Source: Ricordea florida
Taxonomy: Eukaryota > Cnidaria > Anthozoa > Corallimorpharia > Ricordeidae
Direction of reading: 5' to 3'
DNA: 64,000 bases
Assembly: GCA_949710005.1 (NCBI GenBank)
Contig: OX453281.1
Location: forward strand, 24,291,362-24,355,361
Shown here in pieces: positions 42,601 through 48,600 of this stretch. Every line of letters starts with the position of its first letter. Position 1 is the first letter of the stretch. Under the pieces are notes generated by a model. It was given only the letters and a program-made list of their open reading frames with translations. It ran no database searches and was not told the origin of the DNA. Both the position numbers and the translations under genes were made by a program.

Positions 42601-45600
42601 TTAAATTCAAGTCTGAAGCTTTAGCAGTTTTCACATCTCGCGATAGGCGTGTCCTCAACATTCTAGAAACATTTAAGACTCTTTTATGTGTACAAGGCGA
42701 GAATTTATAAGTTAGATTTCTACTCCTATGTTGCAGGCCTAGTTTTGTCCCCTGGGGTACCCCTGATGGGACTTTAGGAAATCTATGATCCAATTGATTA
42801 TTTCAGTCGGCAGATCTAATTTGCACAACTTTTTAACAAGAATCCTATGGTCTATGAGATCAAAAGCTTTCTTATAATCATAGAGTGTAACCCTAACAGT
42901 TGATCCATTGCCATCGCATCCCTTGGTCCAATGGTGAAGCATGTGTAGAAGTGCTTGAGTTGTGGATGACTTCGGCACAGCGCCATACTGGCTTGGGTCG
43001 AGAACATTAAGTACGGCGGATTTCACGTAGTCAACTACGACACACTCTTCCGCAACTTTCGAAAGACAAGGAGTGAGAGAAATCGGCCTTAGGTGCTTCT
43101 TTAGATCCTCCACCGGCTTCATCTTTGGCAATGGAGAGACATCAGCGAGCTTCCAGATCTTCGGGAGACGCTGTTCTTTAAACGAAGAGTTGATGATTTT
43201 AGAGACTGGGAAAGCCAACAGCTCAGCATACTCTTTAAGAAGCCAGTTAGGTATTTCATCCGGGCCACACGCCTTTGATGGATTCAGTGTAGCCAGTGGT
43301 TCAAGGAAAGCCTGATTAATGATCTTTGCAAGTTCCTGGTTGTTACAATCCTCAAGTTCTTCGATGTGGATGTGATTGATGACATTGCCCGAGTTGGATT
43401 GGGATCCACTAAGACGTTTAACCTCCTTCCACCACAGCTTTGGATTTTCATCCTTCATGTACTCCACTTTAACCTTATAGAAGGAGGCTTTGCATGATTT
43501 TCTTTCACGATTTACTACGTTCCTATAGAACTTGAAACTAGATGATTCCCCACCGTGTTCACGGAATGACCTCTGTCGCTTTAGAATCAGCGACGTAAGG
43601 TGGGGCGTCATCCATGGGACGTCAGACGTGTTGACACGAACTCTTCTAACAGGCATAAGGATGGTAAGACCGGTATGGATGACATTATGAAGTATGTCAA
43701 GCATATCCTGGCAGCAGTTAGCAGAGGAAAACAGTGTTTGCCAATCCATAGTACCAAAGTACCGCCCTAGCTCGGCTCACCGACTTTCTTGCTTGTCGCG
43801 CCTATGTACAAATTTCGGAGAGTCCAAAGGGTGGGAAGTGTTGAGGATCAGCATAGAAACCATGCATATTAGTTAACACTAAGTCCAAGATCGCATTTTT
43901 CCGGGTTGGCTTTTTAAAAGTCTGTTAGAGATGTTAAAGAACGAGCCGGACTTATGTTTGAAACTTTTTTGCACATCGGTTTGACAACATCCAGGAGGAT
44001 TAACAATACTCCCAGGTGCTTCATGCTATCGAAACCGGGATAAGCTCCGGCCGTGTGGGCCTTTACCTTTACCGTCGGGGTTTTTGAGATTACAAAAACA
44101 CTCCCTCAAAATCGAAATCGCCTTAGTACGAAGTCAATGACTGAAAATAAAACTAAATAAACCTGGACGTACTATGGTTTTAAGTTGCCTTCATACTTGT
44201 CGAGTATTCGATTTTTTGTGGGTTGTGAGAGGGGGGTCTAAAATCACCTTTCGTAACACGTCAAGATTTGTGTCTAGAATTAAAAGTGCTTTAAGCCAAG
44301 TCTTAGCGTGCACAGGTAGATGGAGCACTGCCTAAATTATGTCAGTATTAACAGAATGTGCCGCAGCATTACTATCTTTTAGATACGTACCCTTGTAGTA
44401 TAAAATAGAAAAAAACACATTTTGGAAAAGGGGAGACATGGTGAAAGAGTTAAACTTTTAGCGCGAGTGACTTAGTGAGCGATTCACTGTGATTTAGGAA
44501 ATCTAGAGGAGAACAAACGAGACATGTCGAATTCTTTGTAGACGTTGTAGTCTCAATCTCGACAATAGTGTTATTGTTCCTTTCGTATAGGTCAATGTGG
44601 GAGCGTTGTGGGGCTGTACGGCTGTTTGTGGAACACGTGACTCTTACAGACCTGGATGAGAGCGAAACTCTATCTGAAAATGTGGTGAAATTATGGAAGG
44701 TATCATTCAATAATTCCTCGCTCATCTTATGTGTAATGAGCAGCCTTTGCACTTCATGGTTTATGGGTGAAAAATTTTAGTTGTCCTGCTTTTTCGCCGC
44801 GGCAAGCAGTGATAGGTTCCGTCGCTACCCAGGAAATAGGATTGAACATTGAAGTTACTTACCCAATAAGATCTGGAAAAAAAAATTAGGACGCAATATT
44901 GTTCCCCTTGTGTGGTTCAAGACGTTACTTCTTAGCGAGAGTTTTCATTGTATACAATGAAAAATTTTAACGTTACCAAGTAATTGAGTACGTATGGAGT
45001 AAGTCGCGTGTGTGAAGTGAGAAGTTTAGTGTTAGCATGTTAGCAATGTCACATGCAATCTAGAAAAAAGGAAATCTCAGCTGTCCCAACAAGTTACAAG
45101 TTCAATGACCTAAAATCGTGTATTTACACTGCGGTTGGAAACGTTATTGAAGATTTGACCTTCCAGGTAAAACGCAGTTTTAGTCAATGGCAATTTAGCC
45201 TGATGAAAAGGAAAAGAAACTGGTTGGACCAGCATGATTAGAGCAAAAACGTTAATTAAAAGTAAAAACTTAAATACTTCAGTTACTCATTTGCCAATTT
45301 TCATATTCTTTAAAGGTGCTTGGAGAAGAGACAGACTTCTTGTCACTGAGATCCCTTCAAATCATTGAAAGGTTTCTCATTTCCTGCAGCGAAGACATGC
45401 AAGATAGGTAAGTGACTCATCAAAAACGTTTCCCTGTCTGTATCAGGGTAAAACCGTTGCCACGAAAAGCGTAAAGAGCTTCCTGATATGAGCCCTTTCG
45501 CTATCAGGCTCAAATCTCTAGCCAGACAAGGTTGGTTCAAGTATTAGCACTTCTAAGGCACTGTACTGTGGTACTGTTTGTTTTACTTTACAGTGTGATT

Positions 45601-48600
45601 TTAACTTTTTCATCTGTGGATCAAACCACGCAGTGTGACCATTCTTTGGAACGCTACTGAACAGTACTGTACTGTAGTGCTGTTTGTTTTACTTATTTGT
45701 GATTCTAACTTTTTCATCTGTGGATCAAGCCATGCAGTGTAACCATTCTTTGTAAAGCTACTGAACAGTACTGTACTGTGGTACTGTTTGTTTTACTATA
45801 CAGTGTGGTTCTAACGTTTTCATCTGTGGATCAAACCATGCAGTGTGACCATTCTTTGTAAAGCTACTGAACAGTACTGTACTGTTGGACTGTTTGTTTT
45901 ACTATACAGTGTGATTCTAACTTTTTCATCTGTGGATCAAACCATGCAGTTTGACCATTCTTTGTAAAGCTACTGAACGGTACTGTACTGTTGTACTGTT
46001 TGTTTTACTATACAGTGTGGTTCTAACTTTTTCATCTGTACGTGTGGATCAAACCATGCAGTTTGACCGTTCTTTGTAAAGCTACTGAACAGTACTGTAC
46101 TGTAGTACTATTTGTTTTACTATACAGTGTGATTCTAACTTTTTCATCTGTGGATCAAGCCATGCAGTGTGACCATTCTTTGTAAAGCTACTGAACAGTA
46201 CTGTACTGTGGTACTGTTTGTCTTACTATACAGTGTGGTTCTAACTTTTTCATCTGTGGATCAAACCACGCAGTTTGCCTAGTCCTATATCCTGTCTATT
46301 CAAACCATGAGCCTTACGATGTGGTTCTACCCTGTAATCTTTTACCATCAGAGTAAATCCTGAAAACCGAAGACGATTACAAATGAATTTCTAGAACTAG
46401 ATTGCTTCTAAGTTTGTTCTGTAGATAGTTAACTGGGACTTTTAAAATTTCTTTTCCTCTTTTGCCCTCCTCGAATAGCTCTCGCTACTTGCGGGCGAAG
46501 GCTCTGTAGTGTTAGAATTTCTTAGATCAAATAAAGAATTGTTTTTGTAAATATATACCTACAGTGCAAATCAACACCCCTTTATTGTACATTTTGACAT
46601 GATACTTGTCGCATGAAAACTTTAATTTAGAGAGGACGAGACGGCCGCGTCTGAGTTCCATCGACGATGTAACGCCTTCTTTATGGAACTTGTGTCAATC
46701 TTCTGTTTTGGTGAAGCCACCTTGAATGACCTTGAACCAGAAGCCCTTTTCATGCTCATGCGTTATGTTACTGGACACCAGTCCACTCAGACCAAGGATT
46801 TCTCGCCTTTCCCTTACTATGGAATCGATCCGACTCCTGTGGTACGGTCATTTCTTCTTCAGCAGCTTCTTCGTTCCAGGTATGAAGTACCTCGGCTGTA
46901 GTTTAAAGAGACCAAAGGCATTTCAATCCTAACAATGCATTTAAATCCTTGCAGTATGCAGGATGTTTGTCCCATGAACTTAGTCTAATGACATTGCTCC
47001 CACGAACACGTAATCGCATCCGAACAAGTAATCGCAGGATCCAAGGTTCGATTCCTGTTGGGAGAAGTCGGGTTTGCTTTTTCCATGTTTGCGCTTGTGA
47101 CAGTGCCAAAAGGTACATCTTTCACGAATTTTCCATGCCCAAAATATACCGTTTTTACTATTTCAAAGACCAAACACCCTTTAACTTTGTTGGGATCAAT
47201 TAGTGTTAAGATGGCAAATGTGTCGATACTGAAGTTACCGTTATATATGCGTTATTACCCAAGCGAGAGGTCAAGATGGCTGCATATTGACCGAACTCTT
47301 TATTTGCGTTTTTATTGACTGAGACGTAGTCAATATTCAGCCATGTTGACCGAACAAGCGTGGTCAATAAAGGATTTATTACATTCTCATTTTGCTTTGT
47401 TCTCGGTCAATAAAAACGCAAAAAAGAACGAGGCCAATGTCCAGCCATCTTGACTGAAGAAATTTGGTCAATAAGAGATTCTTATAACACGACCCGTCCG
47501 GTCCTGCTCACGCTATTACATAGAAAAAGCCGTCCGGGAAAAGCCATCCGGCTCTACTACACTTGTTCGGCGTTGTTGCGTTGCGAAAAAGAAAACATTG
47601 AAAAAAAACAGAAATGAGAAAATAAGTCATGTTTTTCGATGAAACTGCGAATTTCTTGTTCTGACTAGGTAAAGTTTTTTTTGTAGAATCTTTTTTGTGA
47701 TTTTTCTCGCGCTCGCGATAAGTAAAGATAAATTTTCGAAATTTTCTAAACTTAGGACGCTTACCATTCGCCAGAACTGGCCGGTTGGAGCGGTCCATTT
47801 GTTAAGAGAATTCCACTATCAATCAGAACTGTCCAGCCAGATCAGTTTATTTCTACATAGTATGTAAAGCAGTGACAGGTTTTTAGCGAAAAGTCTCAAA
47901 AGAAGCCTACTTCATTTTCAATTTGACCTGCCCAGCTGGTCAGTTCTGACTTTTGGTAAGCGCCCTTAGTCCGTGGTCATATGATAAAATGCTTATTGAC
48001 TCAGTTAGGCAGGCCGGACGGGAAAATATTTGGCTCTCGTTCATGACACGCGGACCTCTCTTCGCTCGGTCCGTACGTCATGACCTCCAACCAAATATTT
48101 CCCGTCCGGCCCTCCCACTAAGTCAATACGCTCATAATGATATGACCATTTTGTTTTGTTTCGCGCAACAGCGCGGGAAATCCCTAGCGGGGAAGATAGG
48201 CCATCTTGCCTACTTGGGCAGCTAATCAGAACTCAAGATTAACCTCATCGTGCCCGCTTGCGGAACCCAGCCACATAATAAAGTTAGTTAATGTTTGCAA
48301 TGACCACCCCTTAATACGTATCAAGGGTACAAATATAGACTATTGATTAAGAAACTTGGCTTCGCTTTTTTGAAATGTCATACCGTAACAGTAAAAGTTT
48401 TAATAGCTGCTGCTATTGCTTTGATGAAACAGCACTAAGTTGGTAAAAGAACAGCTGGAGTTTTTTTTGCAAGAAGCTCAGGGTTTAAAGTCGGATGCAC
48501 AACATATCCAAGAAGTTTGTTTCCTTGCCGTTCAGTGCATGGAGGTTAGTATAGCATTGAGAAGAGTGGTATGATACCCCCCTCTAATAAGCCACCCAAT

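What the first reader, a model, noticed from the sequence alone, without database searches (positions are those of the whole stretch)
45408..46630. RNF213-like gene with the RING finger missing in frame
Exon 34 ends in phase 2 after SCSEDMQD and exon 35 starts in the matching phase with the post-RING peptide ([14 protein letters not shown]). In vertebrate RNF213 the RING cysteines lie exactly between these peptides. I read all of 45408-46630 on the plus strand: it holds about 140 bp after exon 34, the seven-unit minisatellite and about 350 bp of AT-rich sequence, with no C-x2-C...C-x-H pattern. Loss of a phase 2-2 exon would leave the frame open. RNF213 can ubiquitylate through its RZ finger without the RING, so such a protein could still be functional.
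Basis: partly seen in the sequence, partly recalled or inferred. Interest (0 to 1): 0.8.

Follow-up and report, generated by a model that had tools for sequence, protein, structure and literature searches.

The report
Coral-type RNF213 without its RING
This sea-anemone/coral-type gene makes a giant immune-type ubiquitin enzyme (RNF213) that has cleanly lost the RING finger it is named after while its other ubiquitin-transfer domain is kept, and relatives of it without a RING are found in stony corals and sea anemones, so nature seems to have done long ago the RING-removal experiment that biochemists did with the mouse protein.

Summary
The exon ending at 45407 (phase 2) splices onto the exon at 46631. 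Against mouse and human RNF213 the RING lies between them. No RING was found in the 1223-bp intron in six frames. It is neither an assembly hole nor a dying gene. Two sister copies on the same chromosome lack the RING with introns of 2124 and 505 bp; a fourth, incomplete copy lacks it too. The only RNF213-type RING found in the 538-Mb genome is in a fifth copy, as a separate 186-bp phase 2-2 exon. dN/dS between sister copies is 0.39. Twenty protein models from stony corals and sea anemones lack the RING at the same place; 18 fall in two well-supported clades apart from a RING-bearing one. The RZ finger is kept: its last exon, 7 kb beyond the window, has the catalytic cysteine and histidine, though it evolves fast. 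Mouse RNF213 with nearly the same deletion, made on purpose, keeps wild-type-like auto-ubiquitylation (PMC7311170). Best reading: an old RING-less RNF213 subfamily acting through the RZ finger. Transcripts and enzyme activity were not seen. A RING/RZ division of labour between paralogues is suggested, not shown.

The parts
19185..19302 (+). exon with Walker A of the first catalytic AAA unit (GETGCGKT, 19210-19233)
   Evidence: 92% identical to Stylophora P0008
19848..20083 (+). exon with Walker B of the first catalytic AAA unit (LFFDEAN, 19944-19964)
26391..26613 (+). exon with Walker A of the second catalytic AAA unit (GKPGSSKS, 26515-26538)
27437..27792 (+). exon with Walker B of the second catalytic AAA unit (VVLDEVG, 27554-27574)
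33410..33924 (+). exon of the region leading into the E3 module, matching mouse RNF213 chain 6tax 2808-2907 and, weakly, 2952-2992
34400..34870 (+). exon before/within the E3 module
   Evidence: conserved with paralogue C and P0011
36112..36275 (+). E3-module exon
37573..37779 (+). E3-module exon
38828..39042 (+). E3-module exon
   Evidence: 93% identical to copy B
44591..44699 (+). pre-RING exon ([16 protein letters not shown]...)
45316..45407 (+). last exon before the lost RING (VLGEETDF...SCSEDMQD), ends in phase 2
45408..46630 (+). intron where the RING exon would lie; no RING found in six frames
45560..46274 (+). 106-bp minisatellite, 6.7 copies, inside that intron; same repeat found elsewhere at the locus
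46631..46879 (+). post-RING exon ([26 protein letters not shown]...), starts in phase 2
48433..48544 (+). E3-module exon
49793..50218 (+). [not shown]
51194..51313 (+). E3-module exon
52111..52218 (+). E3-module exon (ends approximate)
   Evidence: matched in copy B; P0009/P0011 match 52120-52233
54014..54220 (+). E3-module exon (donor end not fixed)
59431..59533 (+). exon ending ...GDWY, first residues of the RZ finger
   Evidence: exon end counted by hand from the printed sequence
60474..60511 (+). small exon with the first half of the RZ finger ([13 protein letters not shown]); the second half (CSKPMEKIPCPDCGNVMGGEKH) lies outside the window at about C10:24362348

Best explanation
The window holds most of a living RNF213-family gene of a hexacoral that belongs to an old RING-less subfamily. 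The ancestor carried the RING on a separate phase 2-2 exon between the last two helices of the E3-back; that exon was lost, which left the frame open. The protein most likely still works as a transthiolating E3 ligase: the AAA core (two intact Walker A/B pairs) acts as ATP switch, the C-terminal domain docks the E2, and the RZ finger takes ubiquitin on its cysteine (counterpart of human C4516) and passes it on with the conserved histidine (H4537). Shown here: exon structure, RING absence, RZ residues, Walker motifs, C-terminal exons, purifying selection over the gene as a whole, conservation of the RING-less state across species. Inferred from vertebrate RNF213: the enzymatic cycle and a role in defence.
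For: RING missing against mouse/human. Six-frame Pfam negative, paralogue positive control. Whole-genome search with the paralogue's RING: one RNF213-type RING found (copy C, 100%); the other 17 of 18 hits are 35-45% identical, below 38 bits. Sister copies B and E lack it, with homologous introns. RING exon of copy C is 186 bp, phase 2-2. A-B dN/dS 0.385, bootstrap 0.31-0.47, 1780 codons; E3 exons 38828-50218 0.40 over 404 codons. Tree of 51 rows without RING columns: clade I (16 of 16 rows RING-less, 100/100) with the window gene, clade II (6 of 6 RING-less, 98/99), clade III (8 of 9 with RING, 100/100). Stylophora, Desmophyllum and Montipora proteins cross the same exon junction. RZ: E-C-D-H-C...GEC-SKP...CPDC...GGEKH. 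C-terminal exons at C10:24383592-24387758 align to P0009/P0011; the one stop in that alignment lies in intron sequence. Mouse residues 3941-3999 replaced by GSGSG: wild-type-like auto-ubiquitylation (PMC7311170 section 8). Delta-RING still ubiquitylates Salmonella and Listeria (PMC11549300 passages). E2 recruited by the CTD, isolated mouse RING without detectable activity (PMC12075652 passages).
Against: No transcript or protein was seen. Gene models of other species are pipeline predictions whose RNA support I could not check. In window gene A (and copy B) the position of the human zinc ligand H4509 is Tyr, and clade I carries C-x2-C or C-x4-C there instead of C-x3-H. The exon with the second RZ half is the least conserved of the 28 compared between A and B (56% identical; dN 0.277, dS 0.188 over 32 codons, i.e. 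ratio above 1), so the RZ may be relaxed or under changing selection; exons 36112 and 51194 also have dN above dS. The sea-anemone RING-less proteins have Tyr, not His, at the general-base position (P0028, P0088), A. muricata P0014 has Gln, Stylophora P0087 Leu. About 10 kb of inserted DNA separates the RZ exons of gene A. Order of clades I-III is not resolved; the larger tree weakly joins II with III (83/78), which would need two anthozoan losses.
Confidence: 0.68

Rival explanations
1. Division of labour between paralogues: RING-less clades I and II are pure RZ ligases, while the RING-bearing clade III has become mainly a RING ligase (lysine linchpin present, RZ general-base histidine replaced by tyrosine).
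For: 9 of 9 anthozoan RNF213 RINGs read have Lys after the last RING cysteine, where mouse has Leu3986. RZ base position: 6 of 8 RING-bearing rows Tyr, 16 of 20 RING-less rows His. Stylophora P0024, a clade III model without the RING, has His while its close paralogue P0025 with RING has Tyr.
Against: Two RING-bearing proteins keep His (P0081 Montipora, P0083 Acropora); two sea-anemone RING-less proteins have Tyr. Only 2 independent contrasts on the tree, so no statistical support. The histidine's role is a prediction in PMC11549300 (passages).
Confidence: 0.2
2. Pseudo-ligase: the RING-less proteins no longer transfer ubiquitin and serve as ATP-driven coat or scaffold proteins, perhaps in complexes with the RING-bearing paralogue.
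For: Zinc-knuckle changes in clade I, base-position changes in four RING-less rows, fast change of the second RZ exon between A and B. PMC11549300 (passages) reports that coats on Toxoplasma vacuoles form without RZ activity.
Against: His at the base position in 16 of 20 readable RING-less rows, and the cysteine in all that were read (the search pattern demanded a cysteine there, so this last point is partly by construction; own copies A, B, D, E were read directly); Walker motifs intact; E3 exons under purifying selection.
Confidence: 0.21
3. Decaying copy (pseudogene) that happens to have lost an exon.
For: About 10 kb of inserted DNA in an RZ intron, several retroelement-like open frames in introns, five copies on one chromosome.
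Against: No frameshift and no stop in a secure exon against copy B (28 of 40 model exons compared); exons in order against P0008/P0009/P0011; dN/dS 0.385; RING-less form conserved in other genera.
Confidence: 0.04
4. Artefact: RING exon lost from the assembly at the minisatellite, or moved elsewhere.
For: The intron contains a tandem repeat, a classic place for collapse.
Against: Copies B and E, with shorter repeat arrays, lack the RING as well; the one RNF213-type RING found in the genome is in copy C; other species agree.
Confidence: 0.02

Closest known systems
Vertebrate RNF213 (mysterin), e.g. mouse 7oik and human 8s24
   Same: Walker A/B pairs of the AAA core, E3-module exons in the same order, RZ finger, C-terminal domain
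   Different: The RING between pre-RING and post-RING segments is absent; RZ zinc knuckle is C-x2-C with Tyr at the H4509 position
Engineered delta-RING mouse RNF213 (residues 3941-3999 replaced by GSGSG, PMC7311170)
   Same: Nearly the same segment missing; pre- and post-RING parts directly linked
   Different: Made in the laboratory; here a natural, inherited state with its own linker (about [15 protein letters not shown])
RING-bearing anthozoan RNF213 (clade III: own copy C, Stylophora P0025, Desmophyllum P0023, Montipora P0026, Oculina P0080; Orbicella P0001 was in the first tree only)
   Same: Same family, same exon order around the RING position
   Different: Has the RING (in copy C a separate phase 2-2 exon) with lysine linchpin; RZ base mostly Tyr
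Other RING-less RNF213 models (Capitella P0032, Menidia rnf213-beta P0063, Branchiostoma P0123, Stylophora P0024)
   Same: RING missing at the same place
   Different: Isolated models elsewhere in the tree; annotation error or separate loss not distinguished here
ZNFX1 and other RZ-finger proteins
   Same: RZ zinc finger
   Different: No RNF213 AAA core or E3 module; ZNFX1 architecture is recalled, not tested

Membership tests
RNF213/mysterin family | AAA core with two catalytic units (Walker A and B) | tested here: met
   GETGCGKT 19210, LFFDEAN 19944, GKPGSSKS 26515, VVLDEVG 27554; exon homology to P0008/P0011. The six-unit ring itself was not tested
RNF213/mysterin family | Composite E3 module (E3-back, shell, core) | tested here: met
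   Spliced exons match mouse/human chains, E 3e-19 to 3e-18
RNF213/mysterin family | RING between the last two helices of the E3-back | tested here: not met
   Absent. So it is a RING-less RNF213 homologue, not an RNF213 in the full sense of the name
RNF213/mysterin family | RZ finger with catalytic cysteine and histidine | tested here: met
   Cysteine and GGEKH present, zinc knuckle altered; second half outside the window
RNF213/mysterin family | C-terminal domain | tested here: met
   Exons matching the C-terminal parts of P0009/P0011 about 28-32 kb beyond the window
RNF213/mysterin family | N-terminal stalk and CBM20 domain | not tested
   The N-terminal half of the gene lies upstream of the window and was not fetched
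RING-type E3 ligases | C3HC4-type RING | tested here: not met
RZ-type transthiolating E3 ligases | Ubiquitin transfer through the RZ cysteine | not testable with these tools
   Needs enzyme assay; the residues are present

The most novel reading that the evidence does not exclude
Anthozoans have split the two ubiquitin-ligase activities of RNF213 between paralogues: clades I and II dropped the RING and became RZ-only ligases (clade I with a rebuilt C-x2-C zinc knuckle), while clade III kept an active-looking lysine-linchpin RING and let the RZ base histidine go. Losing the RING may also have removed a handle: Shigella IpaH1.4 brings about the destruction of human RNF213 by binding its RING, and delta-RING RNF213 escapes (PMC12440826, passages). 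Corals would then show directly what the RING is for, by having it on one paralogue only.
Probability: 0.18. Interest if true: 0.82.

Novelty: new variant of a known kind. Interest (0 to 1): 0.62.

Why it matters
What the RING of RNF213, a Moyamoya disease and cell-autonomous immunity protein, is for remains open: its removal does not harm auto- or LPS-ubiquitylation, yet PMC12440826 suggests (passage read) that it must have some important function because it has not evolved away in spite of a pathogen effector that grips it. Here is an animal lineage in which it did go, in whole clades of paralogues under purifying selection, beside paralogues that kept it. That makes the question testable by comparing natural RING-less and RING-bearing proteins from one animal, and shows that the RING can be a separable cassette exon. 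It also tells annotators that 'RNF213-like' coral genes without a RING are real and not broken models.

Tried and rejected
Assembly collapse, hidden or relocated RING, RING on the other strand: rejected (one search scores only its best candidates, so its counts are lower bounds). Pseudogene: rejected on dN/dS and open exons. One stop seen lies in a doubtful 5' extension of the exon at 28748. Several hits contain stops and extend past exon ends; I read out only the C-terminal one and take the others for run-in to introns. RZ finger absent from the gene (no PF20173 hit in the window): rejected, the RZ is split over small exons and its second half lies beyond the window. The gene models contain spurious exons (e.g. 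61630-70682, inside inserted DNA); these are not used as parts. A PDB search with the RZ half found nothing. Reciprocal RING/RZ loss as a firm claim: withdrawn after brought two RING-bearing rows with His (P0081, P0083) and one search found only 2 independent pairs. One origin of RING loss (clades I+II): not rejected (p-AU 0.358) but I+III not rejected either (p-AU 0.165) (41-row tree), so left open. In one search the automatic reading of the RZ base was wrong for P0013, P0014 and P0089 (a GG further upstream was taken); I read these by eye from the printed strings (H, Q, H). The copy C protein used was put together by hand before its splice sites were known and differs by a few residues at the two ends of the RING exon from the splice. 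Minisatellite motif counts of 7, 3 and 1 for A, B and E are rough; BLAST shows longer arrays in B and E than that. Rows P0002-P0007, P0015, P0018 were left out of one or both trees (fragments or no pre-RING exons), P0001 and P0034 out of the second, P0021, P0085 and P0086 out of both; of the 131 proteins first listed by the second and third protein searches only some were used in the trees (41 and 51 rows, own copies included). On re-checking I found that I had left out the fast change of the second RZ exon; I lowered the best explanation from 0.72 to 0.68 and raised the pseudo-ligase from 0.18 to 0.21 for that reason.
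Full report
WHAT WAS CLAIMED AND WHAT IS THERE. The window lies at C10:24291362-24355361 of a 538-Mb assembly in 48 contigs. The exon 45316-45407 ends in phase 2, and 46631 opens the next exon in phase 2. The 401 residues read from six exons around the junction match mouse and human RNF213 chains with E 3e-19 to 3e-18. In the mouse chain a weak match before the RING (11 bits) ends at 3933, and the post-RING exon alone matches from 4009, i.e. the RING is what is missing. 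The intron of 1223 bp contains a 106-bp minisatellite of 6.7 copies. No RING pattern or RING profile was found in it in any frame; the same profile search on the paralogue's protein gave seven RING families over cut-off.

THE SAME GENOME HOLDS THE CONTROL. Searching the whole assembly with the post-RING exon gave five copies, all on C10 within about 0.83 Mb: the window gene (A), B at 23.785 Mb (minus strand, 94% identical), E at 23.644 Mb (93%), D at 23.507 Mb (61%) and C at 24.109 Mb (59%). A search with an AAA exon gave the same five and one more place on C12. Copy C has the RING as its own exon, C10:24107405-24107590, 186 bp, phase 2 on both sides; joining its neighbours without it leaves an open frame. 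In B, D and E no RING match was found between the matching exons, nor in A by profile and pattern. A search of the whole genome with copy C's RING found that exon and 17 other places with 35-45% identity and under 38 bits, which look like ordinary RING genes. Introns of A, B and E (1223, 2124 and 505 bp) are homologous at both ends and carry repeat arrays of different length: the loss most likely came before these duplications. Copy D is incomplete: the exon matching 49793-50218 and the first RZ half were not found in the stretch held, although its RZ second half was, so D is weak evidence.

THE GENE IS INTACT AND SELECTED. Exons of A align in order to Stylophora P0008, Desmophyllum P0009 and Montipora P0011, from window position 1527 to about 32 kb past the window end; some hits run past exon ends and then contain stops, of which I read out the C-terminal one. 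The N-terminal half lies upstream of the window and was not fetched. A against B, where 28 of 40 model exons could be matched (the rest lie outside the B stretch held or did not match): no frameshift, one in-frame one-codon gap, one stop in a doubtful exon extension. Without that exon: 1780 codons, dS 0.166, dN 0.064, ratio 0.385 (bootstrap 0.31-0.47); the E3 exons 38828-50218 alone 0.40 over 404 codons. A against E: five exons, 262 codons, 0.29. Single exons vary; the second RZ exon (32 codons) has dN 0.277 and dS 0.188. Both Walker A/B pairs are intact.

THE SUBFAMILY IS OLD. The three protein searches (7, 72 and 79 hits, partly the same) brought 28 named anthozoan models in which I read the junction: 20 without the RING (P0008-P0014, P0016, P0017, P0019-P0022, P0024, P0027, P0028, P0084, P0087-P0089) and 8 with it (P0001, P0023, P0025, P0026, P0080-P0083). 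Not counted: P0085 and P0086 (isoforms named like P0084, junction not read), P0015 and P0018 (preceding exons lacking too). The RING-less ones come from Stylophora, Desmophyllum, Montipora, three Acropora species, Oculina, Actinostola and Actinia. Pfam scans of RING-less models P0008, P0009, P0019 and P0024 found the RZ family and no RING. In P0008 and P0009 the window's two exons match adjoining residues, in P0011 residues with three between them. A maximum-likelihood tree of 51 rows, RING columns left out, gives clade I (16 of 16 RING-less, 100/100, window gene inside), clade II (6 of 6 RING-less, 98/99: copy D, Oculina, Stylophora twice, Actinostola, Actinia) and clade III (8 of 9 with RING, 100/100); 18 of the 20 RING-less models lie in clades I and II, P0024 in III, and P0021 was not put in. 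The order of the clades is open; the larger tree weakly joins II with III (83/78), so one loss or two are both possible. In each clade the window genome's copies branch outside the stony-coral rows sampled (support for this in clade III 92/91; in clade II no Acropora or Montipora is present). By recalled dates the split between the Acropora/Montipora side and the Stylophora/Desmophyllum side is hundreds of millions of years old; the animal may lie just outside the stony corals (inference, e.g. a corallimorph).

THE OTHER LIGASE DOMAIN IS KEPT. The RZ finger is spread over small exons: window 59431-59533, 60474-60511 and, past about 10 kb of inserted DNA and the window end, about C10:24362348-24362445. 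It reads [19 protein letters not shown]...CPDC...GGEKH. By the human numbering given in PMC11549300 (passages) the catalytic cysteine C4516, the ligands C4525/C4528 and the base H4537 are present; the ligand position H4509 is Tyr. In clade I, 13 distinct RZ fingers could be read (own A, B, E and P0008-P0014, P0084, P0087, P0089): 10 have C-x2-C and 3 have C-x4-C where other RNF213s shown have C-x3-H, and the H4509 position is His in 8 and Tyr in 5. This looks like a changed zinc ligand set; that it still binds zinc is inference. C-terminal exons, whose domain recruits the E2 in the mouse protein (PMC12075652, passages), are present.

HOW IT PROBABLY WORKS. Replacing mouse residues 3941-3999 by GSGSG gave wild-type-like auto-ubiquitylation (PMC7311170, section 8 read); deleting the RING left ubiquitylation of Salmonella and Listeria intact and impaired that of Toxoplasma vacuoles only in part (PMC11549300, passages). 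The coral protein is the natural counterpart of that construct. I therefore take it for an ATP-controlled, RZ-dependent E3. Its substrate and role are unknown; defence is by analogy only. The fast change of the second RZ exon and the altered zinc knuckle leave room for a weaker or changed RZ.

A BOLDER READING. In clade III, 6 of 8 RZ fingers read in RING-bearing rows have Tyr at the base position, and 9 of 9 anthozoan RINGs read have the lysine linchpin that mouse RNF213 lacks (Leu3986, PMC7311170). Among RING-less rows with a readable RZ, 16 of 20 have His (own A, B, D, E and 12 others; exceptions P0014 Gln, P0087 Leu, P0028 and P0088 Tyr); P0016, P0017, P0021, P0022 and the uncounted P0015 and P0018 gave no readable RZ. 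This suggests a split of RING and RZ activity between paralogues, but independent contrasts on the tree number only two, and P0081 and P0083 go against it. A second idea: the RING is the handle by which Shigella IpaH1.4 marks human RNF213 for destruction, and delta-RING is not degraded (PMC12440826, passages); loss of the RING could be an escape. I know of no coral pathogen that does this.

NOVELTY. Eight paper searches listed nothing whose title or abstract start speaks of RING-less cnidarian RNF213; the listings were capped (for example 15 of 1,834 papers) and cover open-licence PubMed Central only. The proteins exist in databases as 'RNF213-like' predictions, so the sequences are public; I found no text that remarks on the missing RING. 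I call it a new variant of a known kind.

Noticed in passing
G000 C12:2717000-2726999 (L039): A long uninterrupted open frame (4223 aa) whose AAA part is 50% identical to the window gene's AAA exon; Pfam on the 2624 aa held shows AAA and related P-loop families only, no RING or RZ. Possibly an intronless RNF213-like gene or retrocopy.
   Followed up: partly
window 45560-46274, 19337-19609; beyond the window about 71910-72270; copy C 5578-6114 and 34980-35188: The 106-bp minisatellite family recurs in several introns of this cluster.
   Followed up: partly
G000 C10:23.47-23.52 Mb (copy D): Fourth RNF213-like copy lacks both the RING and the exon matching 49793-50218 in the stretch held; may be a decaying copy.
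   Followed up: partly
P0032 Capitella, P0063 Menidia rnf213-beta, P0123 Branchiostoma, P0024 Stylophora: RNF213 models from other lineages that also lack just the RING segment: repeated loss, alternative splicing or annotation gaps.
   Followed up: no
RING alignment: The linchpin position after the last RING cysteine is Lys in the anthozoan rows, Arg in the three RING-bearing fish rnf213-beta rows, but Val or Met in the fish alpha rows and Leu in the bat row.
   Followed up: no
exon at about C10:24362348 (outside the window), copies A and B: The second RZ exon changes fast between A and B (56% identical, dN above dS over 32 codons) although Cys, CPDC/CADC and His are kept; could be relaxed or positive selection.
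   Followed up: no
window 2576-2992 (-), 41509-41886 (+), 42739-43776 (-), 55615-57228 (+), 58040-58639 (-): Open frames that look like reverse-transcriptase pieces; 55615-57228 resembles a Penelope-like element with a GIY-YIG end (recognised from memory, not searched).
   Followed up: no
between window 60840 and about 70900 (beyond the window end): About 10 kb of DNA absent from copy B separates the two RZ exons of gene A.
   Followed up: partly
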